Positions 2,057 to 32,916 of a stretch of 32,916 nt of DNA are shown here, piece by piece. Location: positions 1 to 32,916 of the forward strand of contig CAMKSY010000006.1 in NCBI GenBank assembly GCA_946415545.1, given 5' to 3'. Within the stretch, counting starts at the first letter, position 1. Every line of letters starts with the position of its first letter. The translations under genes were made by a program, and so were the position numbers. Origin of the DNA: an uncultured Pelosinus sp. Its GTDB lineage: Bacteria > Bacillota > Negativicutes > DSM-13327. The notes beneath the pieces were generated by a model that saw nothing but the letters and a program-made list of their open reading frames with translations, did not search any database and was not told the origin of the DNA.

Positions 2057-2085
2057 ATTATAGAGACAATGAAAATCATTGTCAA
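2057..2085 (-). promoter_or_regulatory. Promoter with embedded Fur box for the tonB-like gene
   Basis: Minus-strand TTGACA (2080-2085), 17-nt spacer and TATAAT (2057-2062) form a perfect sigma-A promoter. A Fur box, GACAATGAAAATCATTGTC (2065-2083), fills the spacer and matches the 19-bp consensus at 16 of 19 positions. Iron-bound Fur there would block RNA polymerase. Confidence 0.85.
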
Positions 2086-2168
2086 TTAAAGACTTTGAAT
2101 CTCTTGCTACTTTTCCCCCCAATAGGGTGTGCCTTCTTATCTTTTAGGAGGACCTTTCGGATGGTCTG

Positions 2169-13119: not shown

Positions 13120-13149
13120 ATTATATTAGATAACGATAATCACTGTCAA
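13120..13149 (-). promoter_or_regulatory. Promoter with embedded Fur box for the ABC transporter
   Basis: Minus-strand TTGACA (13144-13149), 18-nt spacer, TATAAT (13120-13125). GATAACGATAATCACTGTC (13129-13147), overlapping the spacer and -35, matches the Fur consensus at 16 of 19 positions. Confidence 0.82.
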
Positions 13150-13197
13150 TTACACTCTGGCTTTATTTCTATGTAAATTAGCGATTTACCAAAAAAA

Positions 13198-17413: not shown

Positions 17414-17454
17414 CTTTTTCCTCCTAGCTTAACATCTTTACTAACGATTTTGCT

Positions 17455-17503
17455 GATAATGAAATTCTTTATCATTTACATCTGTTCATCATTATACTAG
17501 AAT
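17455..17503. promoter_or_regulatory. Fur box and divergent promoters (receptor 3 operon / Crp gene)
   Basis: GATAATGAAATTCTTTATC (17455-17473) matches the Fur consensus at 16 of 19 positions. On minus, a perfect TATAAT (17491-17496) points to receptor 3 but has no good -35. On plus, TTTACA (17475-17480), 17 nt, TAGAAT (17498-17503) could drive the Crp/Fnr gene, so one Fur dimer site may touch both. Confidence 0.68.
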
Positions 17504-19811: not shown

Positions 19812-22652
19812 ATTTCAATACATCTAATGTGTTAGTTACTCGTACCAATATAGCCTTTGTACCAGACGCTACTAAATTTCAATACATCTAATGTGTTAGT
19901 CACTCTGTCAGAGCCATCCGGCAAACTGCCATCTTGCACTTATTTCAATACATCTAATGTGTTAGTTACTCGCTACAGCCGGAGGCAACCCAATTCAAAG
20001 AAACAGATTTCAATACATCTAATGTGTTAGTTACTCAAAACCATACTTACGTAGACGAGCTGCCACACTCTCATTTCAATACATCTAATGTGTTAGTTAC
20101 TCTAAATCTCTTCTGCATGTTCCTTGCTGGCATTCTAATTTCAATACATCTAATGTGTTAGTTACTCTTCTCTCTTGGTAACCTCTTGGTGCGGAGCGAT
20201 ACATTTCAATACATCTAATGTGTTAGTTACTCCCTGTCTCATTGCTTCTTCAATATCAGTGATCATTATTTAAATACATCTAATGTGTTAGTTACTCAGT
20301 TGCGATATTGAGCCATGTAGTGGTGGTCATCCATTTCAATACATCTAATGTGTTAGTTACTCTATTTTTAACGCCTCTTATATTGTTCCAACTGGCAAAT
20401 TTCAATACATCTAATGTGTTAGTTACTCAACGGATAAAGTATTTTCCAGTTTTTATGGATTTAATTTCAATACATCTAATGTGTTAGTTACTCGAAAGTA
20501 AAGATGATTTACAAAGAAACCTGACGTTATTTCAATACATCTAATGTGTTAGTTACTCAGCACGACATTGCAACGAAACAGAGAATTGATGCCGATTTCA
20601 ATACATCTAATGTATTAGTTACTCGACAGGCGTATAGAAGAACATCGTCTGGAATATGGATTTCAATACATCTAATGTGTTAGTTACTCACAATTAGATT
20701 CTATAGGCCTACATATGTTGCTATATTTCAATACATCTAATGTGTTAGTTACTCGTAGTATCTACGTTTCTACCAGACCATAATAGCCAATTTCAATACA
20801 TCTAATGTGTTAGTTACTCGTATGATCCTTGGCGTGTAAACTGTGGTATGTCTCATTTCAATACATCTAATGTGTTAGTTACTCCACGCCACCTATGTTA
20901 CCGATTATGTATAGTTATAGATTTCAATACATCTAATGTGTTAGTTACTCGAACGTTTAAATGCTTTGCTTGCTGCCAACTTCCTATTTCAATACATCTA
21001 ATGTGTTAGTTACTCAGTGCTTCCTCGCAAAATTCTTCATCTAGATAATCTATTTCAATACATCTAATGTGTTAGTTACTCAATTCATCATGATCGATTG
21101 GGTAGCAGGTTGCGGTATTTCAATACATCTAATGTGTTAGTTACTCCTAAATTATCAACCTTAGACTGGCAAGGTGTGCATATTTCAATACATCTAATGT
21201 GTTAGTTACTCTTGCCTACCGTTGTACCGTGTGGCATACCATCATATATTTCAATACATCTAATGTGTTAGTTACTCGCGACATTCTAATCGTTATATCG
21301 AGCATTTTAATATCATTTCAATACATCTAATGTGTTAGTTACTCTTTGGAAGCCGTAGCAACAGTTAAAGAGTGTATCAAATTTCAATACATCTAATGTG
21401 TTAGTTACTCTGAACCATGATATTAGGCTTTTCTATCTCAAACAAAATTTCAATACATCTAATGTGTTAGTTACTCGCAAGTCTTGCCGGAAGTGTGGAC
21501 AAGAGATCGTATTTCAATACATCTAATGTGTTAGTTACTCATAAATTTCCTCCATCCTAGAACATCGTTAATCTGTATTTCAATACATCTAATGTGTTAG
21601 TTACTCGCTGGAAATTTAAGACGTTGGGCTGATGCCCTAGCAAATTTCAATACATCTAATGTGTTAGTTACTCGAAAAAGTATAACCTTTATTGTAGGTG
21701 ATAAATCAATTTCAATACATCTAATGTGTTAGTTACTCGAGCGGTACAGATAGAATGGCAGCTTATGCGAATGAATTTCAATACATCTAATGTGTTAGTT
21801 ACTCCAAGATCTACCACCGCAAATTCACAGAATTAGCAAATTTCAATACATCTAATGTGTTAGTTACTCTAGAACGAATGGGTAAGATCCTCGGACTGTT
21901 TAAATTTCAATACATCTAATGTGTTAGTTACTCAGGAATGGCCTTCGCTGGCACATTGAAAGTAGCTGAATTTCAATACATCTAATGTGTTAGTTACTCC
22001 AGGATCCGGCGGTAGTTCTGGCAATGTAATATAGATTTCAATACATCTAATGTGTTAGTTACTCCATGTATATCCCCCAACGATATAAGGAGGTGACATA
22101 ATTTCAATACATCTAATGTGTTAGTTACTCGTGCTAGCTTCATAATACTCGCACTACCGAAATTAATTTCAATACATCTAATGTGTTAGTTACTCGCGAA
22201 ATCTCTCCTTGGAGACTTTGGCGGGACATAATTTCAATACATCTAATGTGTTAGTTACTCTCTACTCCTTTACCTTTGTCTTGGTTTTTATCTAATTTCA
22301 ATACATCTAATGTGTTAGTTACTCGCAGACGCATTGAGGGCAACTGGTAGGCTATCCGAATTTCAATACATCTAATGTGTTAGTTACTCAAAATATTAAA
22401 ACCAACACCTTACCGCAAAGGATAATTTCAATACATCTAATGTGTTAGTTACTCCATGTTATCCAGCGACATTAAACAGCTTGTAAGCCGATTTCAATAC
22501 ATCTAATGTGTTAGTTACTCCCAATCAGCGCATTGAATTAATTGGCAGAATGTTTAAATTTCAATACATCTAATGTGTTAGTTACTCAATAAAACAGTAT
22601 CTGACTGGCTTCTAAATTACCAATTTCAATACATCTAATGTGTTAGTTACTC
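19812..22652 (-). CRISPR. CRISPR array 1, 44 repeats, type I-B
   Basis: Forty-four 30-bp repeats and 43 spacers of about 34-37 nt. In crRNA orientation (minus strand) the repeat begins GAGTAACTAAC and ends GATGTATTGAAAT; the ATTGAAAT end is the usual 8-nt 5' handle of type I-B crRNAs. The array therefore runs from the cas2 side (22652) towards 19812. Most repeats are identical; single-base variants are at 19876 (C for T), 20268 (A for C) and 20595 (A for G). Beyond the last repeat, 19757-19782 contains a fragment like a decayed repeat (CAATACAT ... GTTAC). The internal ACAT-TAG-ATGT dyad gives the weak hairpin expected for Cas6 processing. Confidence 0.98.
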
Positions 22653-22830: not shown

Positions 22831-23115
22831 TTAAAGGATAAGCGACTCGGTTTGTTTATGATCGGTTCCGAGAACCTCTTCGCTAAAGTCGGCCTTGCTC
22901 TTTAACTTTACGAGAGTAATAAAATCTTCATCCTTTACAATAATTTTGGCAAGTTCATTTTTTAATGCAATCAAATTAGCAGGAGTGATATGTCCTCGGA
23001 ATACTGACTTCTGATGATGCTTAAAATACTTTTTGCAAACCTTAAAAACTTTCTGTACCCTCTTTTCACCTATATCATAAAAAATGAATGCATAATTATA
23101 GTTAACATTACTCAT
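22831..23115 (-). CDS. cas2: CRISPR-associated endonuclease Cas2
   Basis: 94 residues, standard Cas2 size. The ferredoxin-like fold begins with the strand YNYAFIFYDI, whose aspartate (about residue 14) is the conserved one at the end of the first strand, followed by KRVQKVFKVCKKYFKHHQKSVFRGHI, the usual second region. Cas2 dimers bridge two Cas1 dimers in the spacer-integration complex. The ATG overlaps the cas1 stop (ATGA), with GGAGG 7 nt upstream, so it is translationally coupled. It is the last gene of the operon and abuts the CRISPR leader. Confidence 0.95.
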   Translation of the reverse strand: MSNVNYNYAFIFYDIGEKRVQKVFKVCKKYFKHHQKSVFRGHITPANLIALKNELAKIIVKDEDFITLVKLKSKADFSEEVLGTDHKQTESLIL

Positions 23116-24119
23116 CCTTTGTCCTCCATATTAAAAAAAGCAATCGGTTTTTCTTCCATTAGATATTTGATCAACTTATAACCATCTAGTCTTATGGTTT
23201 GTTTATATGAAACCTTTCGCCTAAGTTTACTATGTTCGAACACCCCGTTAATCCGTTCCTCGAATTCTGTAATAAACACTTTTCGTCCAGCATCATTAAG
23301 CAATGCATAATTTAATTTTTTGTCAAAATGTTTTGCTACACTTATTTTTCTATTGTTTACACAATCAAAAATAGTTTTGTATACCAAAATTGGCTTAAAT
23401 GCCTCTGATAAGTCTAAACTTAAAGAATAGCGCCGTTCCATTGGCTCATGTAGATACGAGATCGTTTGATTCAAATGAGTATGGTAAAGTTGTGTCAGCG
23501 TTTTTGTATACAATAGCGTATTACCAAAAGACACCAACGCATTCATTGGATTGTCAGGAGGACGCCTTACTCTTTTATTCATCGCAAATTCTTCCGGCAA
23601 GATGAGCTTAAAAGTTGCATAAAACCTGGCCCAAATTTCGCCTTCCAAGCTTAGCAAATTCTTGATAGCGCTGATGCGCAGTAATACATCAGGGACATCC
23701 TTCTTTAACCAATCCAGGAACGGTTTTAGCTCGCTCTTACCATGCCTGTAATAATGATATAGAACAGAATGAATGTTTAAGGAAATTGCTTTTACAATAG
23801 CTTTCGCAATGGTCAAACGTTTTTCCTGATTATCATAGGCTAATGCTTGTGAAACGGTCAGCCTGCCGCTAAGCAGATAATCTTTGGGATAGAACGTTCC
23901 CACATAGTTTTCATAGTAGCCAAAAAAATGCACTACAATTCCAGATTTTGATAATATTTCTAATAATTTTGTACTTAACGTGATGTCATTAAAGCAATAT
24001 AATTCTTTTGTATCTTTAATCGGTAGATAAATATTGCCACGCTCACCACGAAAACAAATTGAAAAATCTTTGCGGCTTAAATCACCCTTAGAAAAAATAT
24101 AGCGTGTCTCTTCTTTCAT
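23112..24119 (-). CDS. cas1: CRISPR-associated endonuclease/integrase Cas1 (type I-B)
   Basis: 335 residues. The N-terminal beta domain contains LVVHF-type strands (SGIVVHFFGYYENYVG), and the helical catalytic domain carries the metal ligands: E159 in SLEGEIWARFY, H224 in SYLHEP, and D236/E239 in SLSLDLSEAFKP. Together with Cas2 it cuts and inserts new spacers at the leader end of the array. Length and motifs are those of an active type I-B Cas1. It lies between cas4 and cas2 in the operon. Confidence 0.97.
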   Translation of the reverse strand: MKEETRYIFSKGDLSRKDFSICFRGERGNIYLPIKDTKELYCFNDITLSTKLLEILSKSGIVVHFFGYYENYVGTFYPKDYLLSGRLTVSQALAYDNQEKRLTIAKAIVKAISLNIHSVLYHYYRHGKSELKPFLDWLKKDVPDVLLRISAIKNLLSLEGEIWARFYATFKLILPEEFAMNKRVRRPPDNPMNALVSFGNTLLYTKTLTQLYHTHLNQTISYLHEPMERRYSLSLDLSEAFKPILVYKTIFDCVNNRKISVAKHFDKKLNYALLNDAGRKVFITEFEERINGVFEHSKLRRKVSYKQTIRLDGYKLIKYLMEEKPIAFFNMEDKG

Positions 24120-24141
24120 TCCATAATCTCCCTATCTATTT

Positions 24142-24630
24142 CTAAATATAGCAATATTCGTAATAAGCACAACGCTTACAGCCTGTTTTTAAATTTGCTG
24201 CAGGAGGAATCGGGCTAAGTAAAAACTCTTCTATTTCCGCATATTGTTTATTAAGCTGTTGAACCAATTCTTCATTAAGCTCTGTATAATGAACTTTCTT
24301 ACCTTGCTTGTTTTTTTCCCATACTTCCAACCGCCCTTTGCGATTAATTCCCTTTTGGGCCAGCCGCAGCAGATAAAACTGGATTTGTGCCATAGCCGCA
24401 TTAAGATCAGCATCAGATTTCTTTAGCTCCACCACATATTCATCAGTAATCTTGTCCAGTTTGATATTATCAATAGCTAATTCTCCGTCCTTCTCCGAGT
24501 TGAGTGCATGCAATACTCTGCCGATTCGCACATCTTCAGAATTATCTTCCAGATTCAGCTTGTGATAGAACAGCCAGCATTGCCGGGGACAATGTACATA
24601 ATAATTAACAAGTGTACCAGTTAGCATCAT
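24142..24630 (-). CDS. cas4: CRISPR-associated exonuclease Cas4
   Basis: 162 residues, a compact Cas4. An N-terminal cysteine (C14 in VHCPRQCWLFYH) and three C-terminal cysteines (GCKRCAYYEYC) can hold the [4Fe-4S] cluster. The RecB-type nuclease core is present: GRVLH, a central acidic stretch, EYVVELKKS and the QIQFYLL helix (QxxxY). Cas4 trims prespacers and selects those with a correct PAM and orientation, with Cas1-Cas2. Two tandem ATG codons overlap the end of cas3, so the start may be one codon later; either way translation is coupled. Confidence 0.95.
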   Translation of the reverse strand: MMLTGTLVNYYVHCPRQCWLFYHKLNLEDNSEDVRIGRVLHALNSEKDGELAIDNIKLDKITDEYVVELKKSDADLNAAMAQIQFYLLRLAQKGINRKGRLEVWEKNKQGKKVHYTELNEELVQQLNKQYAEIEEFLLSPIPPAANLKTGCKRCAYYEYCYI

Positions 24631-27035
24631 AGAAACAGTCCTTTCCCTTGATTCATGAAAGCTTTCCGATTAAATTTGCCATTTTCGATAAACTGCTCAC
24701 CGTTTTCGATATAATAATATCCGCCAAATTCCTCATCACACCCCAGGGTTTGCTGATCATAACTATATACACTATAGGTAAAATACGACATCTGCTCAGC
24801 CAGCCTAGACAATTCGACTTTTCGATGACCATACCCCATATTCTTAGCCTGGCAAATTTCTTTGTAACGCTGCCAGATATCCCTTCCAGAAATAAGCTGA
24901 TTTTCGCTTAGAAGGTCATAAGCCAAAAATATCTGATAGGTTGGCGGAATCAGACGCATGTCCTGTTCTATTTCCTGATATTTTAGTTCCAGACATTTTG
25001 CGTAGGTATAGTGGATATTCCGGCTCGTTCTGGACTGGCTTATGGCCCTAACCTCTTGCAAAATTCCTTCATAGATCCCTTTAAAATCCTTTTGTCTCAG
25101 CAATTCTGCCACTGGCTGCTTGGTTATGGGATAATTAAGCCGCTCATCAGTACCATATATTTTTTTCGCGTCATCATAATTGAAAAAATAAGCTTTGCCA
25201 CGCCGCAGGCAGGAACGGTTAATTCGCCCTAAGAACTGTTCTTCGGCATCTGGCAGGGATGTATCTTTAAATCCAACGTCCATATCGATATCCACACCAG
25301 CCTCAATCACCTGGGTTGCAACAACAATAATGCTTATCCTGTTTTTTATTTGTTCAATGATGGCTTTTCGATTACGGGAATTATCATCACCTGTTACTTC
25401 TACACAATAAATATCCGTCTCTTGACACAACAGATTAAAGAACTCCCGGGCAGTATTTTTATTAATAAACTCTACGAGTACCTTCCGTTCTCTATACTCC
25501 AGCACCATATCCTTTAATACGTTTAAGTCAATCTTTTTGTAAGATAGCAGTGAAAGATCCAGTTTTACTCGATCTCGAAAAAACTTATTTTGATAGTAGA
25601 TCTGGGGCTCTTTAATTAAATCAACAATATCATATTGATGGTCATCCAGCAGCAGATCTAATTTCGGCAGCGTCGCGGACATCATAATAATTTTGATATT
25701 TAACAAACTGGCATATTGCAGTAAAAATAAGATAATTTGTTGCCAAATCGCATTACGATAGCTTTGAATTTCGTCAATAATTACTACGCTGTTACATAGT
25801 TTAAGGAGCGGAAAACACTGCTCCCTCCCTGTACTAAACAGGGCATTGAAAAAATTGACATGAGAAGTGACAACCAGCGGGTAATTATTGAAAATTTTAT
25901 GAAGTGCCGCTTTTTCATAATCAAGATCTTGTTCTTTTTCCTGATTTCCGGCTGTTGGTTCAACATAAATAGGCGTAAGTGAATTAACGACCGCCATATC
26001 TTTCCCATACTCAAAATATTCGCCGAGAACTGCTGCCGTCTGTTCTACAAGCGTATTAAATGGGAAAATGTAAAACACATTGGATAATTGTCTCTGCTCA
26101 TCGAGCAATGTTAGGAATAAATTAATCGACATATTGGTTTTCCCCGATCCGGTGGGAGCTTCTAAATAGTACAAGCTGGCTGTTGGGTGTTTCCGCAAGT
26201 TCTGCTCGGCTTCTAAAAAGATCTTACAGCGCTGTTCATTGATAGATTCGGCAAAAATACGGTTATCCTGCTGATACTGTTTAATACCAGTGTATACTTT
26301 ACCAGCGTGGTATTTATTCTTCAATTCCTCTATGTTGTCTATGGTGCAAAGATCCACAGGCACCCCATTCATATACTCCGAAGTGGCACAATAGTCACAA
26401 GCCGTAATTACACTAAATAGCAGCTTATTTAGAATATAAAAAGCGGTTTCATTGGTAACCACCTTTTTAAGCTGATCATATCCCTTATCCGTCGTGAAAA
26501 TACTATTCTTCGTTAGATCGAGTTTCTTCTCATAGCAGCCGTCTTTTTCCATACATTCCTGTATTCTTTCTTTAAAACCTCCAATATCTTTAAGAAACCC
26601 ATGATGACGGGCAATGCAGTAGCTAAAAGAAAATAGAAAATAGGAAAACTTTTTCATATCATTTTTTGCGATGATTTCCAAATGTTCACACAGATAAATA
26701 TAGGCGGATAATGTGGCATGATTACTACTGTTATAGGTAACAGGAAAGTTAGGGTTTTTTAATATTTTTCGCTGATAGACGGGATTGATTTTCCCAATGT
26801 CATGCTGGTATACAGCATCTACAAAGAATTGATAGATTGCCGTTGTTTCTCGTACATCACAGCCACATTGCTTAATGATTTTTTTGATGATGGCCGACAA
26901 ACCCTTTTTCTCACAAAACAAGTGATAATAGGCAAGGCATAGTTCACTATGCTCTGCCAACGTTTCTGGGCTTTTCGCCTCGTCTGTATGAGCCCAGTAC
27001 CGCGGATCACTCAGGGAATCTTCTATAACGCTCAA
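24627..27035 (-). CDS. cas3: CRISPR-associated helicase/nuclease Cas3 (type I-B)
   Basis: 802 residues. An N-terminal HD nuclease domain (H29 in LAEHS; H78-D79 in YQHDIGKINPVYQ; YCIARHHGFLKDIGG) is followed by an SF2 helicase with Walker A PTGSGKT, a DEIQ box (VVIIDEIQSY), SATLP, and motifs V/VI (VATQVIEAGVDIDMDVGF ... LGRINRSCLRRG). Recruited by Cascade after R-loop formation, it unwinds and shreds the target strand. Start is TTG 27033-27035 with GGAGG 10 nt upstream; no better start exists nearby. It overlaps cas4. All catalytic motifs look intact. Confidence 0.97.
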   Translation of the reverse strand: MSVIEDSLSDPRYWAHTDEAKSPETLAEHSELCLAYYHLFCEKKGLSAIIKKIIKQCGCDVRETTAIYQFFVDAVYQHDIGKINPVYQRKILKNPNFPVTYNSSNHATLSAYIYLCEHLEIIAKNDMKKFSYFLFSFSYCIARHHGFLKDIGGFKERIQECMEKDGCYEKKLDLTKNSIFTTDKGYDQLKKVVTNETAFYILNKLLFSVITACDYCATSEYMNGVPVDLCTIDNIEELKNKYHAGKVYTGIKQYQQDNRIFAESINEQRCKIFLEAEQNLRKHPTASLYYLEAPTGSGKTNMSINLFLTLLDEQRQLSNVFYIFPFNTLVEQTAAVLGEYFEYGKDMAVVNSLTPIYVEPTAGNQEKEQDLDYEKAALHKIFNNYPLVVTSHVNFFNALFSTGREQCFPLLKLCNSVVIIDEIQSYRNAIWQQIILFLLQYASLLNIKIIMMSATLPKLDLLLDDHQYDIVDLIKEPQIYYQNKFFRDRVKLDLSLLSYKKIDLNVLKDMVLEYRERKVLVEFINKNTAREFFNLLCQETDIYCVEVTGDDNSRNRKAIIEQIKNRISIIVVATQVIEAGVDIDMDVGFKDTSLPDAEEQFLGRINRSCLRRGKAYFFNYDDAKKIYGTDERLNYPITKQPVAELLRQKDFKGIYEGILQEVRAISQSRTSRNIHYTYAKCLELKYQEIEQDMRLIPPTYQIFLAYDLLSENQLISGRDIWQRYKEICQAKNMGYGHRKVELSRLAEQMSYFTYSVYSYDQQTLGCDEEFGGYYYIENGEQFIENGKFNRKAFMNQGKGLFL

Positions 27036-27128
27036 TACAAAATCGCCTCCATTCCAAAGCTTACAGTATCTGTATACTTCAATAAGTTAAACATAGTAAG
27101 AAAATAGGGCGGAATCAATCCGCCCCTG

Positions 27129-27887
27129 CTAAAAAAAGCATAATACCTTATTACCATCCTGTAATAACTTGCCTTTCACTTGTTTTACTGCACAATTGGT
27201 ATAAAGCAGTTGCTGAAATACATAAAAGTTATGCTCTGGTTGCAATGCTATCGGTGCGCGTTCAGAAAATATATAAGCCGCTTGATCCTCAAAAGTCTCC
27301 GAATCGTCAATAACGTCCAAATCACCAGCAAACAATGAATTGACGAATATCACTCCATCTTGTTCGACGAAATCTAGATCACAAGACTCCACATTCTCAA
27401 TGATGGCAGGAAAATCATTTTTTCCGAGATAAGGAATATACGTACATTTTTGTTTTGTTAGATATTCCACAAGTTTGTTCCAGTTCTCCACTGTCACAGT
27501 CCCCCTGATAAGATATACTGTCCAGATGGGTTTCTCCAGCCATTGCTCAAATACCATAAGATTTCCACCTGCCTCTTTTGAGGCATAGCCTACGCTGTTA
27601 TTAAAGTATTGAACTTTTTTCGTAAAATAACCTCGCTTGGCTTCCGGTATTAGAGCCACCTTAAGACCTGCCAGTTTTTTATAAAATTCCGGAAAGTCAT
27701 TTTTTTCTTCACCAAATAAACGATGATTCCGATACCCTTTTAAACCAAGGATTGCCCCCAGTAAACCTAGCAAAGCTACCCGATGAATATTATTGTAAGT
27801 AAAATATACCTGCTCATTGACATCTGGCTTGCGAAAGCAGGCCGCCTCTCCCGACAAACGAAATTTGACAGCTTGGATTTTCATCAT
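27129..27887 (-). CDS. cas5: Cascade subunit Cas5 (type I-B)
   Basis: 252 residues. The N-terminal RAMP fold has the type I-B pattern: KFRLSGEAACFRKPDVNEQVYFTYNNIHRVALLGLLGAILGL. Cas5 caps the 5' handle of the crRNA in Cascade. The second of two tandem ATG codons (27884) is a better match to the GAGG ribosome site than the first. It follows cas7 by 17 nt, and 93 nt separate it from cas3, the largest gap in the operon. No missing domain is seen. Confidence 0.93.
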   Translation of the reverse strand: MMKIQAVKFRLSGEAACFRKPDVNEQVYFTYNNIHRVALLGLLGAILGLKGYRNHRLFGEEKNDFPEFYKKLAGLKVALIPEAKRGYFTKKVQYFNNSVGYASKEAGGNLMVFEQWLEKPIWTVYLIRGTVTVENWNKLVEYLTKQKCTYIPYLGKNDFPAIIENVESCDLDFVEQDGVIFVNSLFAGDLDVIDDSETFEDQAAYIFSERAPIALQPEHNFYVFQQLLYTNCAVKQVKGKLLQDGNKVLCFF

Positions 27888-27904
27888 ATGCCTCTTTCAG
27901 CCAT

Positions 27905-28870
27905 TTAGCTTATAGCCCGGCCAAATAAATCATATGCAGTGCAAGCCAGACCACCAAAATCAACATCCGTATCGATTGGATTATAATAGACTTCAACGCT
28001 GTCAATCTCTTGTTCATGTCCCTTGAGCAGTTCTGCCAATCTAGTCAGAGTTATCGTATCGCGACCGCTATTCTTGCTGAAATCAACATACCGATCCAGA
28101 TTCGGCAAATACAAGTCGCTGTTTTCCTTACAATGTACAAAAAGGGCAAACTCGTTTTCGCTACCGCTTTTACTGTTAGTATGAAATGCCGTTGCTGCCA
28201 CCAAACAAGCTTTTTTTAACTTAGCAAAGGCGTCTTGGGTGTAGCCTTGAAACCCTTCAATTCCTAAATCTAGATATTCCAGATAATTACCTGGATTCAC
28301 GGCAATTGAATAAAAATAATGCGCTTCATCGGTTACGATCTTGCTGCCCAGCGTTGAGGCTGTAGCATCCTCTTTCTTGTCGCTGGAATTGCGGTACGGT
28401 GAAAGAATCTCCTGATTTTCGATCTGTGTATCTGCATATTTGTTAAAGCCTTGACCAATTTGTACAGCTCCGGTGATGCTGATATTTTGTTTTTTCTCAG
28501 CAAATGTGACACCGAAATTCATGACATCAATCGCTGAAAATAGATTTTTCAAGACTTCTCTAGAAGGAGTTTTTTCATTGATAGACGTTTTATATAGTTG
28601 TTCATAGCGCTCCTGCAGATCCCGGGGTTGCAGCTTTCCCCCTTCTTCCTCACTGCTTTTGCCTTTTGTTTCAATTTTATAGGACTTGATCGCCAGCACT
28701 TTTTCCCCAGCCGCCTGCCACATTCTTTTGATTGGATATTTCAAAGCCTTGTCACTGCCAAAAATGGTACCATTGGAAATAGTCTTCGGTCTGGCGCTAA
28801 AGTCAGCATTCCAATTAGCCATAATGCTGCGAATGGCCACAACTCCATAAACCCGATTATTCATCTGCAT
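27905..28870 (-). CDS. cas7: Cascade backbone subunit Cas7 (type I-B, Csh2-like)
   Basis: 321 residues. The beginning (RVYGVVAIRSIMANWNADFSARPKTISNGTIFGSDKALKYPIKRMW) and the central VMNFGVTFAEKKQNISITGAVQIGQ segment are typical of Cas7 of the Csh2/Cst2 group. Several copies line the crRNA spacer and form the backbone of Cascade. The ATG lies inside the end of cas8b (14-bp overlap), so it is translationally coupled. Confidence 0.94.
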   Translation of the reverse strand: MQMNNRVYGVVAIRSIMANWNADFSARPKTISNGTIFGSDKALKYPIKRMWQAAGEKVLAIKSYKIETKGKSSEEEGGKLQPRDLQERYEQLYKTSINEKTPSREVLKNLFSAIDVMNFGVTFAEKKQNISITGAVQIGQGFNKYADTQIENQEILSPYRNSSDKKEDATASTLGSKIVTDEAHYFYSIAVNPGNYLEYLDLGIEGFQGYTQDAFAKLKKACLVAATAFHTNSKSGSENEFALFVHCKENSDLYLPNLDRYVDFSKNSGRDTITLTRLAELLKGHEQEIDSVEVYYNPIDTDVDFGGLACTAYDLFGRAIS

Positions 28871-30611
28871 TGTTATTTTCCCCCTCTGCTTCTTTGAAAT
28901 AGTTTATATTTGAAGATGCAGCCCCAGCCAAAAACAGATCAAATCCAGACACTTTTTCAGTCAAGCACTCATAGCCCATAACCGCAGCAAGCAGTCTATT
29001 ATACCGGATATTATTCCAACCTAATGCATGGCTATATTTTTTGTGCAATTTTATGATTTCCTGTTTAAATTTGCTGACATCCTTAGCATCGACTACATGA
29101 TCAATGATCGCATAGGTAGGTTTATACGCCTGGCTTTTGGAAATCAGATAACGAACCAGTTGTCCTGCATAATAATAGAATTCCTTATCGTTTTCGCAAC
29201 TAATTACCTCATCTGTTTTGCCAGTAATCAGCTTTTCCTTGAGACCTTGTGCTAAATTTACCAATTGATTACCCAATTCTACCTTCTCCTTTATTTTGAA
29301 ATATGCAAGCAATGATAATCGCAGATTCAGCCCCTTGGCAATCTTGGTGTCCTCCAGCTTCGAATACGATTCTCTAAGCAGCATTTCTTTCAGCATAGCC
29401 TGGGATAACCGATCAATGCAGCTTACTACATCTCGTTCATCGTCTTTACGAAAATAATTGCGCAGTGCCTCCTTATAGCGAATCACTAGTCCAACCTGGA
29501 AGCTAGAAAACCAGTCGTTTGGTTTAGGAGATTTGTTAAAATAATTTCTGATTAAGTTTTTATTAAACAACCAGTCATCTATAATAATTTCCAATTCTGC
29601 TTTACTGTGAATCTTTCTCGGAGCAAAATCATCCAGCAGTAGAAAATTCTCCAATGTTAACACTGGCATTAATTGATCCGACAACCCTGGCAAAAAATCA
29701 TATTCATCAATAACCGCCTGGGCACCCCGCTCCAAATGCAAATAATGAGCATCCCGCGGCTTAGAATCCGACTTAACCAGCGTAAAAACATTAGATGCCC
29801 CAATTGGCAAATACCCTTCGGTTAGTGCCTTACCTGCACCATCCTGCTGATTGTCTAACCAGGTAAACATCTTTCTTGTTTCTAAAGCTTCGGTTGTACT
29901 AATCCGAAAAGGCACTTTAAAAGCTGTCGTTTTATGCTCTAAAAAAGGCTTTTTCCCATTCATCCCCATGTTGCTGTTAGACAATCCATAGGTCATATTA
30001 TTAATGGTCACGTTATAATCATTCCTATTGAAGATTTTGGGAATCAAGTAACGCTTACTTTCCTGCATATAAGTTGCAAGTTCAACAGCAAAATAAAGCT
30101 TGACATAGAAAGTCCCTTTGATTTTATATTCAGTAATCTGCTGCTGTAGATACGGTATAAGGCTTACTACATATTCCTGGTTATGCTTAATTACTTGCTC
30201 GTCCAATGGAGGAAATTGATATTTTTTTAAAATCTTGGCATCTTCTTTTTTTGGTGAACACAAAGCTTGATAATATCTAGCGATACTGGTCTTAAACGTT
30301 TCTACTGCATCAGTACCTTCTATCAATGCAGCCGCTTTAAAAGCCAGGGCATGGATATTATTGCTATGAATTTGCTTTTTAGGATCAACAGGCTTATTCA
30401 TATCTACCAGTTGACTGTAAAAATCAGCAGCTTTTATATAATTCCATAGTTCTCCCCTGTTGTAGCCCTTTTTTTCCACATGCAAAATCTCAGGTTCTTT
30501 ATGCTGTCCATACAGCTTGAAATACAATCCTTCTTTAAGCTGGTAATTATCAATGACCAAGGTATCCCCATCTGCATTTTTACGGTAAACTTCCAGCAAA
30601 TCAAGAATCAT
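28857..30611 (-). CDS. cas8b: Cascade large subunit Cas8b (type I-B, TM1802-like)
   Basis: 584 residues. The N-terminal region (LVIDNYQLKEGLYFKL) and the DPKKQIHSNNIHALAF block are typical of the TM1802-type Cas8b. As the large subunit it should recognise the PAM and recruit Cas3. GAGGAGGTGAAAAG precedes the ATG, one of the best ribosome sites in the window. It lies between cas6 and cas7. Cas8 sequences diverge quickly, so the assignment rests on both sequence and position. Confidence 0.92.
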   Translation of the reverse strand: MILDLLEVYRKNADGDTLVIDNYQLKEGLYFKLYGQHKEPEILHVEKKGYNRGELWNYIKAADFYSQLVDMNKPVDPKKQIHSNNIHALAFKAAALIEGTDAVETFKTSIARYYQALCSPKKEDAKILKKYQFPPLDEQVIKHNQEYVVSLIPYLQQQITEYKIKGTFYVKLYFAVELATYMQESKRYLIPKIFNRNDYNVTINNMTYGLSNSNMGMNGKKPFLEHKTTAFKVPFRISTTEALETRKMFTWLDNQQDGAGKALTEGYLPIGASNVFTLVKSDSKPRDAHYLHLERGAQAVIDEYDFLPGLSDQLMPVLTLENFLLLDDFAPRKIHSKAELEIIIDDWLFNKNLIRNYFNKSPKPNDWFSSFQVGLVIRYKEALRNYFRKDDERDVVSCIDRLSQAMLKEMLLRESYSKLEDTKIAKGLNLRLSLLAYFKIKEKVELGNQLVNLAQGLKEKLITGKTDEVISCENDKEFYYYAGQLVRYLISKSQAYKPTYAIIDHVVDAKDVSKFKQEIIKLHKKYSHALGWNNIRYNRLLAAVMGYECLTEKVSGFDLFLAGAASSNINYFKEAEGENNNADE

Positions 30612-30623
30612 CTTTTCACCTCC

Positions 30624-31310
30624 TCACTCGCATAGACAATATCCCATGCCAATTGAATTTTTCTCTAGCAAACCCGCACCAATGGCAGCAAACGCCAACT
30701 GCTGGGATACGGGATCGCTTTGTACACTGATGAGCAGCTTGTGTCCTAAAAATGAGTTAGATTTATAGGGAATTTTGATCGGCTTTTCATTCATAATTTG
30801 AATTCCCTCAATGAAGTTCTGTTCTGGCTCGTCCATTTCTCCGACAAAGGCACGATACTTCTTCAAAGCGTTAATATGTATTCTTTCCATCAGCAGCTTT
30901 AGCCCATTGTCTTTAGTCCAAGACCGATTGTTGACTGTAGCCACTAATGGGGTGAGACTCTTTAGCTGTGTTATATAGCGATATTCAAAGTTTCTAATTT
31001 CAGCAGCCATAACACCTGCCTTCAATTGCGGCAAAAGGTATTTTAACTTTAATAACAGATCCAATTCAAAAGAGCGGATGTGAAAGATATATACACGACC
31101 TTTTTTATAAACCTTATCTTCCTCCCGGGGATATAGATTACAGAAAGAATACCCCTTCAAAGACCTTTGCCCGTGCAATTCTTTAAGCTGTGGATCATGA
31201 AGCATTGCATTTGAGATGATTTTCGACAAATATTCGTATCCCCTTGATGCTTCAATATCCGTTTGCAGTAAGATTGTGACTATTAGTTCATGGTAAAGCA
31301 AAGCAGCCAT
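30624..31310 (-). CDS. cas6: crRNA-processing endoribonuclease Cas6
   Basis: 228 residues with the two RAMP-like halves of Cas6 and the C-terminal glycine-rich motif GAGLLEKNSIGMGYCLC. Cas6 cuts the repeat to leave the 8-nt handle AUUGAAAU; it should therefore act on the repeats of both arrays and perhaps on the two degenerate repeats just upstream. A GTG (31313) immediately precedes the ATG (31310); AAAGGG is very close to both, so the start is uncertain by one codon or a little more. It is the first gene of the cas operon, and the promoter lies 60-100 nt upstream. Confidence 0.93.
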   Translation of the reverse strand: MAALLYHELIVTILLQTDIEASRGYEYLSKIISNAMLHDPQLKELHGQRSLKGYSFCNLYPREEDKVYKKGRVYIFHIRSFELDLLLKLKYLLPQLKAGVMAAEIRNFEYRYITQLKSLTPLVATVNNRSWTKDNGLKLLMERIHINALKKYRAFVGEMDEPEQNFIEGIQIMNEKPIKIPYKSNSFLGHKLLISVQSDPVSQQLAFAAIGAGLLEKNSIGMGYCLCE

Positions 31311-31378
31311 CACCCTTTCTAATTTTATATGTTACTTTATTTATTATGTACTATCATTTAATAGGATGTAATAATTGA

Positions 31379-31407
31379 ATATTAAAATAATTATACAAAA
31401 ATGTCAA
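31379..31407 (-). promoter_or_regulatory. Promoter of the cas operon
   Basis: Minus-strand TTGACA (31402-31407), 17-nt spacer, TAATAT (31379-31384). Start predicted near 31372. A perfect TATAAT at 31390-31395 is an alternative -10 but has a poor -35. The segment 31366-31376, at or just after the start point, matches the start of the nearby pseudo-spacer. Confidence 0.58.
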
Positions 31408-31417
31408 TACTTGTAAT

Positions 31418-31447
31418 TTGTTTTCATAAATTTCTTTATGCTATAAT
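31418..31447 (+). promoter_or_regulatory. Promoter of the crRNA-like RNA / fic transcript
   Basis: TTGTTT (31418-31423), 18-nt spacer, TATAAT (31442-31447). Start near 31454, two bases before the first degenerate repeat, the spacing expected if the transcript exists to make the crRNA-like RNA. Confidence 0.55.
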
Positions 31448-31455
31448 TAAATCTA

Positions 31456-31541
31456 TGACAACCTCTACTTAGGGAGTATTGAAATTATTACATGATTGTA
31501 CACTTGGCAATTTTACAACCTATACATTAGATGTATTAAAT
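31456..31541 (+). ncRNA. Candidate crRNA-like regulator (CreR/CreA type): two degenerate repeats around a pseudo-spacer
   Basis: Repeat-like element 1 (31456-31485) ends GTATTGAAAT, identical to the last 10 nt of the CRISPR repeat, and has a small TACT/AGTA stem directly before the 8-nt handle, as in the true repeat. Element 2 (31512-31541) contains ACATTAGATGTATT followed by AAAT, 18 nt of the repeat with one deletion; its hairpin is even longer (ATACAT/ATGTAT). Between them is a 26-nt pseudo-spacer (31486-31511). Orientation is opposite to both arrays. The first 8 nt, TATTACAT, match the cas promoter start region (minus, 31373-31366), extending to 11 nt if the last AAT of the repeat is counted. 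Self-regulation of cas by Cascade is inferred. Confidence 0.55.
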
Positions 31542-31583
31542 AATAAACGAAAAGGTATATTGGCTATCAAGCAAATTGATAAT

Positions 31584-31691
31584 ATGAGGACGGATGAGTA
31601 TATGTTAATAAAACTCAAGGATCTATTAGCACAAATCAATCATACTCGTCAAAAAATTGATGTCCATCAACCTTTTGCTGACCTATGTTAA
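31584..31691 (+). pseudogene. N-terminal fragment of the Fic protein, separated by a frameshift
   Basis: From ATG 31584 or 31602 the frame reads LIKLKDLLAQINHTRQKIDVHQPFADLC and stops. This is the helical start normally fused to Fic domains (a LKxLLxxIDxxKxxLDxxRPL-type helix before the YxxxSNAIEGN segment). The main Fic frame opens at 31685, inside this stop (ATGTTAA), and has no ribosome site of its own. Adding one base near 31683 would join the two into a normal-length protein of about 247 residues. The longer frame upstream of 31584 runs through the degenerate repeats and is not a gene. Confidence 0.62.
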
Positions 31692-32344
31692 GCCAGTTAA
31701 AGACCTACTATCGTGTCGGCCTGACATATAGCAGTAATGCTCTTGAGTCAAATTCACTCACGGAAACAGAGACCAAAGTCGTGTTGGAAGATGGATTAAC
31801 CGTTGGCGGCAAGCCGCTCCGGGATCATTTGGAAGCTGTGGGACATAGTGAGGCATACGATTTTATTTTTTCACTCCTGTCCGACAATTTATTTACCGAA
31901 CAGGACATTCTAACCCTGCACCGAATGTTTTATACCAAAATTGATGAGGGGCAGGCAGGACGATATCGCCGGCAGCGGGTATTTATCAGCGGTTCACAGC
32001 ATGCTGTTCCTAACTGGCCCGATGTTCCTCTTTTAATGGGAAAATGGCTCAAGGAGTTACCTGAGCAAAAGAAAAAACTGCATCCAGTGGATTTGGCTGC
32101 TCAGGTGCACAAAGATTTTGTTTTTATTCACCCTTTTGTGGATGGCAATGGCAGGGTTGCAAGACTCTTGGCCAACCTAGTATTAATCCAAACTGGACAC
32201 TTACTTGTCATTATTCCGCCGATCCTTCGTGCAGAATATATCAATAGTCTGGAAAAAGCACATATAGATGATACCGATTTTCAGCAATTTATCGCAGAAA
32301 GAGTATTAGAAACACAACGCGATTATCTCAGACTCTTGAAGTAA
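31685..32344 (+). CDS. Fic-domain protein (putative AMP-transferase, toxin-like), probably frameshifted at its start
   Basis: 219 residues in this frame. The complete Fic catalytic motif HPFVDGNGRVARLLAN is present, so the active site looks intact. An N-terminal inhibitory-type motif reads SSNALESNSLT, the family's SxxxE(G/N) helix with S instead of G, typical of class II Fic proteins that inhibit themselves; the following ETETKVVLEDGLTVGGKPLRDHLEA block is characteristic. Fic enzymes transfer AMP to hydroxyl side chains of target proteins, and some are toxins. ATG 31685 has no ribosome site and overlaps the stop of the N-terminal fragment, so the gene is either frameshifted or translated by coupling. 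It lies between the cas promoter and CRISPR array 2, downstream of the crRNA-like unit on the same strand. Confidence 0.85.
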   Translation: MLSQLKTYYRVGLTYSSNALESNSLTETETKVVLEDGLTVGGKPLRDHLEAVGHSEAYDFIFSLLSDNLFTEQDILTLHRMFYTKIDEGQAGRYRRQRVFISGSQHAVPNWPDVPLLMGKWLKELPEQKKKLHPVDLAAQVHKDFVFIHPFVDGNGRVARLLANLVLIQTGHLLVIIPPILRAEYINSLEKAHIDDTDFQQFIAERVLETQRDYLRLLK

Positions 32345-32467: not shown

Positions 32468-32916
32468 ATTTTAATACAATCTAATGTTATAGTTATTCGA
32501 ACCATTTGAATATAAACTGTTCAAATGGTTATATTATTTTCAGTACATCTAATGTGTTAGTTACTCGGATCGAGTGATTGTGGCTAGGCATTTCTGCTAT
32601 GGATTTCAATACATCTAATGTGTTAGTTACTCTTTAGGTGAATCGTTAGCACTTGCTTTGGAAACCGATTTCAATACATCTAATGTGTTAGTTACTCATA
32701 AGAGCCTGTAAAAGCTCCTGTACCACCTATGCCTATTTCAATACATCTAATGTGTTAGTTACTCCCTATAGCGGTTTAGCCTATGTAGCAGGTTATATAT
32801 TTCAATACATCTAATGTGTTAGTTACTCTTTTCGACCAACTTGCCAGTAGAATTTCGTAAATCTAATTTCAATACATCTAATGTGTTAGTTACTCGGAAG
32901 AACAGGAACTTAAATC
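32468..32916 (-). CRISPR. CRISPR array 2, trailer end (continues past the window)
   Basis: Same repeat and orientation as array 1. Five intact repeats begin at 32603, 32668, 32735, 32799 and 32866. The repeat at 32537 has two substitutions, and the outermost unit at 32468-32498 is decayed, with several changes and an inserted base. Decay at this side marks the trailer end, so the leader lies to the right beyond 32916. The first interval (32499-32536) is not an ordinary spacer: it holds a perfect 11-bp inverted repeat AACCATTTGAA/TTCAAATGGTT (32500-32510 with 32520-32530). Confidence 0.95.

What the first reader, a model, noticed from the sequence alone, without database searches (positions are those of the whole stretch)
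31366..31541. Crypt crRNA-like RNA beside the cas promoter, with a seed matching the cas start region
Seen: two degenerate CRISPR repeats (31456-31485, 31512-31541), opposite in orientation to both arrays, flank a 26-nt pseudo-spacer and start two bases after a predicted transcription start. Element 1 keeps the exact 10-nt 3' end of the repeat; element 2 keeps 18 nt and has a stronger hairpin. The pseudo-spacer begins TATTACAT, which occurs in the cas promoter region on the minus strand at 31373-31366, at or just after the predicted cas start; counting the repeat's last AAT the identity is 11 nt. Known: CreR/CreA RNAs of type I systems have this repeat-spacer-repeat form and use short seed matches to guide Cascade, without cleavage, to a cas or toxin promoter. 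Inference: this unit autorepresses the cas operon. Caveats: the three bases before the 8-nt match are AAT, the same as the repeat end, and TTC (a known I-B PAM) lies three bases further out, so the register is unclear. A 7-nt match to the same seed also occurs in the array 1 leader, so chance cannot be excluded.
Basis: partly seen in the sequence, partly recalled or inferred. Interest (0 to 1): 0.92.

Follow-up and report, generated by a model that had tools for sequence, protein, structure and literature searches.

The report
CRISPR-like RNA that represses cas genes
Next to its CRISPR genes this bacterium carries a decayed mini-CRISPR whose RNA very probably steers the CRISPR complex to the start of its own cas operon and dims it; in two relatives the same unit points instead at a tiny membrane-peptide gene that may encode a toxin.

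Summary
The degenerate repeat–spacer–repeat unit is real: ψR1 31456-31485, ψ-spacer 31486-31512, ψR2 31513-31542. It recurs in two relatives (same genus; another family of the class) and in no other of 380 class genomes scanned. ψR1 keeps the 8-nt 5' handle exactly and ψR2 keeps the 3'-handle part, as in CreA/CreR genes. The 8-nt match at 31373-31366 has flank AAT, the repeat's own end, seen at no protospacer. The real target lies next to it: minus strand 31363-31347, 5'-TCC PAM, pairing at 1-5, 7-11 and 13-17, with mismatches only at 6 and 12, the positions type I guides leave unpaired. It is the only such site in the 3.9-Mb genome. It sits just downstream of the TTGACA-17-TAATAT cas promoter, in the cas6 leader. 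Array spacers give a mostly TCA PAM (5 of 8; TCC once). The relatives' ψ-spacers differ but match their own sites, both with TCA, each upstream of a 22-23-aa hydrophobic ORF (one Hol_Tox-like, sub-threshold). In the same-genus relative that ORF precedes cas6; in the window it is gone. Best reading: a CreR that autorepresses the type I-B cas operon, probably converted from a CreTA-like toxin guard. No expression data exist.

The parts
31442..31447 (+). extended -10 (TGC-TATAAT) of the creR-like gene; predicted start about 31454
   Evidence: similar extended -10 (TGNTATAMT) 32-36 nt before the handle in all three loci
31456..31485 (+). ψR1: degenerate repeat; last 10 nt GTATTGAAAT identical to the array repeat (8-nt 5' handle ATTGAAAT)
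   Evidence: GTATTGAAAT and the following TATT invariant in three loci
31486..31512 (+). ψ-spacer, 27 nt: TATTACATGATTGTACACTTGGCAATT
   Evidence: arrays have 34-37 nt
31513..31542 (+). ψR2: keeps ACAACCTATACATTAGATGT (3'-handle part); the 8 nt after the expected Cas6 cut are degenerate
31347..31363 (-). target protospacer TATTAAATGATAGTACA in the cas6 leader; pairs at 1-5, 7-11, 13-17, mismatches at 6 and 12
   Evidence: unique in the genome
31364..31366 (-). PAM 5'-TCC-3'
   Evidence: PAM inferred from array spacers: TCA x5, TCC, GCA, TTC
31379..31407 (-). predicted cas promoter TTGACA-17-TAATAT
   Evidence: a same-strand TTGACA-17 promoter is found in both relatives
30624..31313 (-). cas6b, first gene of the cas operon
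   Evidence: PADLOC Cas6b 1.5e-74
28857..30611 (-). cas8b (type I-B effector large subunit)
   Evidence: 2.6e-132
22831..28870 (-). cas7, cas5, cas3, cas4, cas1, cas2
19812..22652 (-). CRISPR array 1, crRNA sense on the minus strand
32469..32916 (-). CRISPR array 2 (distal end inside the window)

Best explanation
The unit is a creR-type gene: a mini-CRISPR with two degenerate repeats that makes a crRNA-like guide. Cas6 would cut ψR1 and ψR2 to leave an 8-nt 5' handle and a 3' handle, and Cascade (Cas8b-Cas5-Cas7) would load it. Guided by 15 base pairs (positions 1-5, 7-11, 13-17) next to a TCC PAM, it would bind the cas6 leader about 10-25 nt after the predicted start of the cas mRNA and block transcription; the short spacer and partial pairing would keep Cas3 from cutting. 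When Cascade is scarce, occupied by other crRNAs or inhibited, repression would ease. Shown: the unit, its conservation, target, PAM and uniqueness. Inferred: transcription, processing, binding, repression. Also inferred, from two relatives: the unit descends from a guard of a small hydrophobic-peptide gene and was retargeted to cas when that gene was lost here.
For: Target match and PAM, uniqueness in the genome, significance. PAM from array spacers. Conservation of ψR1 and ψR2 in two relatives and absence from the other class genomes scanned. Covariation: each ψ-spacer matches its own locus (scores 15, 12, 12) and, with one exception, not the others' (5-6.5; one at 10, flank ATT); all three best sites have TCN PAMs. 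ψR1 conserves the handle and ψR2 the 3'-handle part, as described for creA genes in PMC8501985 and PMC9458426. The protospacer has the sense of the mRNA, so RNA-RNA pairing is excluded. Complete I-B cas operon. CreR is an established mechanism (PMC12737573).
Against: No transcript or expression data. PAM TCC is supported by one imperfect array protospacer only (the main PAM is TCA). The unit lacks a terminator and would read into fic. Only three loci, and the window is from an incomplete genome (85%). The G041 match has a mismatch at seed position 3. The fourth genome with a closely related cas6 (G026) has no detectable unit, so the unit is dispensable.
Confidence: 0.8

Rival explanations
1. 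One reading: the guide uses the 8-nt (or 11-nt counting the repeat end) match at 31373-31366 at the cas start site.
For: Exact 8-nt identity at the predicted start site.
Against: Flank AAT equals the repeat's own end and occurs at no array protospacer; the adjacent 17-nt site is far stronger and has a TCN flank; the relatives' targets also have TCA.
Confidence: 0.05
2. A dead relic of a toxin-guarding unit: the toxin gene was lost, the unit decays and regulates nothing.
For: Both relatives have a small hydrophobic ORF next to the target and the window has none. The window's ψR1 stem is weaker than in G005 and G041.
Against: A 15-of-15 match at all paired positions with a TCN PAM at a new site, the cas6 leader, is not what decay produces; the handle is still exact.
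Confidence: 0.1
3. The unit acts on the downstream fic gene as a Cas6-cleavable 5' leader, coupling Fic to Cas6.
For: In the window and in G005 fic lies about 60-100 nt downstream on the same strand with no terminator between.
Against: G041 has the unit without fic; in the window the fic start region is shifted out of frame; it does not explain the spacer-target match.
Confidence: 0.08
4. An ordinary remnant of an immune array whose spacer once matched a phage.
For: It has the repeat-spacer-repeat form.
Against: Opposite orientation to both arrays, 27-29-nt spacers, handle/3'-handle asymmetry, and in three loci the best match lies in the adjacent control region.
Confidence: 0.02

Closest known systems
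CreR (cas-regulating crRNA-like RNAs of type I and V-A; Liu et al. 2023, Cell Host Microbe, known here through the reviews PMC12737573 and PMC12948488)
   Same: Mini-CRISPR beside the cas operon; partial match with PAM to the cas control region; no toxin gene in the window.
   Different: Homologous units in relatives point at a small hydrophobic ORF; the original CreR paper could not be read here.
CreTA (creA of Haloarcula and of Acinetobacter; PMC8501985, PMC9458426, PMC10097628)
   Same: Two diverged ψRs with the same split of conserved parts (8-nt handle in ψR1, 3' handle in ψR2), position-6/12 mismatches, PAM-flanked target nearby.
   Different: Known CreT toxins are small RNAs; here the relatives' targets precede 22-23-aa hydrophobic ORFs, and the window has none.
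CrePA (protein toxin under CreA; review PMC12737573)
   Same: A protein-coding gene would be repressed by a crRNA-like RNA (relatives only).
   Different: CreP is described as a KilA-N protein; the relatives' ORFs are single hydrophobic stretches, one weakly Hol_Tox-like.
Hol_Tox / type I toxin-antitoxin
   Same: G005 ORF matches Pfam PF16935 at E = 0.0012.
   Different: Below the Pfam cut-off; the guide has the same sense as the mRNA, so it cannot act as an antisense antitoxin.

Membership tests
CreR | mini-CRISPR (ψR-ψS-ψR) outside the arrays, near the cas operon | tested here: met
CreR | ψR1 keeps the 8-nt 5' handle; ψR2 keeps the 3'-handle part | tested here: met
   feature described for creA in PMC8501985 and PMC9458426
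CreR | partial complementarity to the cognate cas promoter region next to a working PAM | tested here: met
   PAM TCC is a minority PAM
CreR | within the matched stretch, mismatches only at positions 6 and 12 | tested here: met
   rule from PMC8501985
CreR | RNA is transcribed, Cas6-processed and bound by Cascade | not testable with these tools
   needs small-RNA sequencing
CreR | cas expression rises when the unit or Cascade is removed | not testable with these tools
   needs reporter or RNA-seq
CreTA | a toxin gene under the targeted promoter (window) | tested here: not met
   no hydrophobic mini-ORF next to the unit in the window; cas6 follows directly
CreTA | a toxin gene under the targeted promoter (relatives G005, G041) | tested here: inconclusive
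   22- and 23-aa hydrophobic ORFs with ribosome sites just after the target; Hol_Tox E = 0.0012, sub-threshold, for one only
CrePA | KilA-N protein toxin under a CreA-repressed promoter | tested here: not met
   no such gene beside the unit; neighbours are cas6 and fic
type I toxin-antitoxin (antisense RNA) | antitoxin RNA complementary to the toxin mRNA | tested here: not met
   protospacers have the mRNA sense in all three loci

The most novel reading that the evidence does not exclude
One family of crRNA-like guides switches between guarding a small hydrophobic (Hol_Tox-like) peptide toxin and repressing cas. In G005 the peptide gene sits as the first gene ahead of the cas operon, so one guide may control toxin and cas together; in the window the peptide gene was lost and the guide was retargeted to the cas6 leader. 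That would give CreTA a membrane-peptide toxin and show a CreTA-to-CreR conversion.
Probability: 0.4. Interest if true: 0.75.

Novelty: new member of a known kind. Interest (0 to 1): 0.6.

Why it matters
It adds a type I-B example of RNA-guided cas autorepression in the class to which the Pelosinus genome G005 belongs, with an exact target, PAM and pairing pattern that can be tested by point mutation. The three homologous units suggest how an addiction module and a cas regulator may turn into one another, and point to a peptide-toxin candidate not linked to CRISPR in the papers searched here.

Tried and rejected
Solo repeats in G316 are leader-plus-first-repeat scars and those in G026 a small array, not crypts. 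G059 and G001 hits to ψR2 are isolated partial matches. The divergent cas6 loci L023, L024 and L028-L037 gave no convincing mini-ORF. Array spacers had no match in the phage collection. A sequence-only model of the unit found no fourth member: the other hits are arrays or weak partial matches. PADLOC hits of the Fic protein (PDC-S04, SoFic) did not tie it to the unit. No paper in the library holds both CreTA and holin-like. RNA hairpins of the ψRs are weak or variable and were not used as evidence.

Full report
OBSERVATION. The array repeat, read on the crRNA strand, is GAGTAACTAACACATTAGATGTATTGAAAT; both arrays are on the minus strand. On the + strand, between cas6 and a fic gene, lie ψR1 (31456-31485, TGACAACCTCTACTTAGGGAGTATTGAAAT), a 27-nt ψ-spacer (31486-31512) and ψR2 (31513-31542, TTACAACCTATACATTAGATGTATTAAATA). 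ψR1 keeps the exact last 10 nt of the repeat; ψR2 keeps the middle and loses the last 8. That split is what sequencing and alignment showed for creA genes, where ψR1 gives the 8-nt 5' handle and ψR2 the 22-nt 3' handle (PMC8501985; PMC9458426). The ψ-spacer is shorter than the array spacers (34-37 nt). In the Haloarcula I-B system shortened spacers lose interference but still repress; 24 nt was called safe and 28 nt still showed some cutting (PMC10989794), so partial pairing probably matters here as well.

RELATIVES. A pattern search and a sequence model over 380 genomes of the class found no fourth. A cas6 of at least 75% identity occurs in four of the 380 genomes (window, G005, G041, G026), and three of them carry the unit. 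In all three units GTATTGAAATTATT and ACAACCTATACATTRGATGTATT are kept while the spacer varies, and an extended -10 lies 32-36 nt before the handle.

TARGET. Scoring matches from spacer position 1 with positions 6, 12, 18 and 24 ignored, the best site other than the spacer itself in the window is minus 31363-31347, TATTAAATGATAGTACA against spacer TATTACATGATTGTACA: identical at 1-5, 7-11 and 13-17, different only at 6 and 12, 5' flank TCC. Positions 6 and 12 do not pair in type I guides, and creA mutants there are silent (PMC8501985); in the Acinetobacter I-F creA the essential positions were 2-5, 7-9 and 13-17 (PMC10097628). The pattern occurs in the 3.9-Mb genome only at the spacer and at this site, with no one-mismatch site. 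In 990,112 positions of other loci none reaches 14 of the 15. Against dinucleotide shuffles of the region 2 of 3000 reach the score, and 0 of 212 array spacers do. The site lies 16-32 nt after the -10 end of the predicted cas promoter TTGACA-17-TAATAT (31407-31379), in the leader of cas6.

PAM. Spacers of the window and G005 were matched to relatives' genomes. Eight distinct protospacers have 5' flanks TCA (five), TCC, GCA and TTC (one each). G041's spacers gave only imperfect hits: TCA, TCG, TTG, CCG.

COVARIATION. G005's ψ-spacer TATTGTGTTACTG matches TATTGTGTTACAG at L025 15478 minus (11 nt, then 13-14; PAM TCA). G041's TATTAATTTGCCGTTGATTTGAG matches TAATATTTTGCTTTTGATTTAAC at L026 17710 minus (mismatches 3, 6, 12, 13, 21; PAM TCA; weaker). 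Own-locus scores are 15, 12 and 12, each reached by at most 1 in 1500 shuffles; cross-locus scores are 5-6.5 apart from one of 10 with flank ATT. Spacer and target have thus changed together. Each site is the best in its locus and has a TCN flank.

WHAT IS TARGETED. In G005 and G041 the target lies about 20-40 nt before a mini-ORF with a ribosome site: MTVFQALYVAIAFATLMVLVVK (L025 15443 minus) and MTNFEILYLLIALATLGVLIVKK (L026 17672 minus). A mechanical search of the cas6-bearing loci found only these two beside a unit. The first matches Pfam Hol_Tox at E = 0.0012, below the cut-off; the second does not. Hol_Tox-like frames occur elsewhere in these genomes too, so the toxin label is a lead only. 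In G005 the mini-ORF lies between the TTGACA-17-TATTAT promoter and cas6 on the same strand with no terminator found, so the site could control peptide and cas together. In G041 cas6 is about 3.5 kb away from the mini-ORF. In the window the mini-ORF is absent and the cas6 leader, homologous to that of G005, carries the target. Two of three units, in two families, have the mini-ORF, so its loss in the window is the simpler history (inference).

MECHANISM. The guide has the same sense as the target mRNA in all three loci, so it can pair with the template DNA strand but not with the mRNA; this speaks for Cascade and against an antisense RNA. The cas operon is complete and type I-B (Cas8b 2.6e-132, Cas6b 1.5e-74). 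The most likely function is autorepression of cas as described for CreR (PMC12737573): more free Cascade, more repression. Transcription, processing and repression are not shown.

VERDICT. As a CreR it is a new member of a known kind; the switch of target between a peptide gene and cas within one homologous family is the new element and rests on three loci.

Noticed in passing
window 31602-32344: The fic gene downstream of the unit appears frameshifted near its start compared with G005: one base fewer before ATG 31685. The residue after the E of the stretch resembling the Fic inhibitory motif is S instead of G. It may be a real change or a MAG error.
   Followed up: partly
L025 15520-15790: In G005 the stretch holding the unit's promoter region is present twice in near-identical tandem form (GTGCTATAAT boxes about 150 nt apart).
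   Followed up: no
window 2064-2088, 13128-13152, 17454-17478: Three related GATAATGAAAATCATTGTC-like repeats near receptor and transporter genes, resembling Fur boxes.
   Followed up: no
L088 about 5050 and 6400 (G316): Two isolated leader-plus-first-repeat scars with no array behind them, in a genome that also has a different repeat family.
   Followed up: partly
L078 (G005:C76:50468-50506): A G005 spacer matches G005's own genome with one mismatch (flank TTC): possible self-targeting or a prophage; a poorer match lies in the window's own genome (G000:C172:6011).
   Followed up: no
L027 9500-10050 (G026): G026 has a cas6 75% identical to the window's but no detectable unit upstream of it.
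   Followed up: partly
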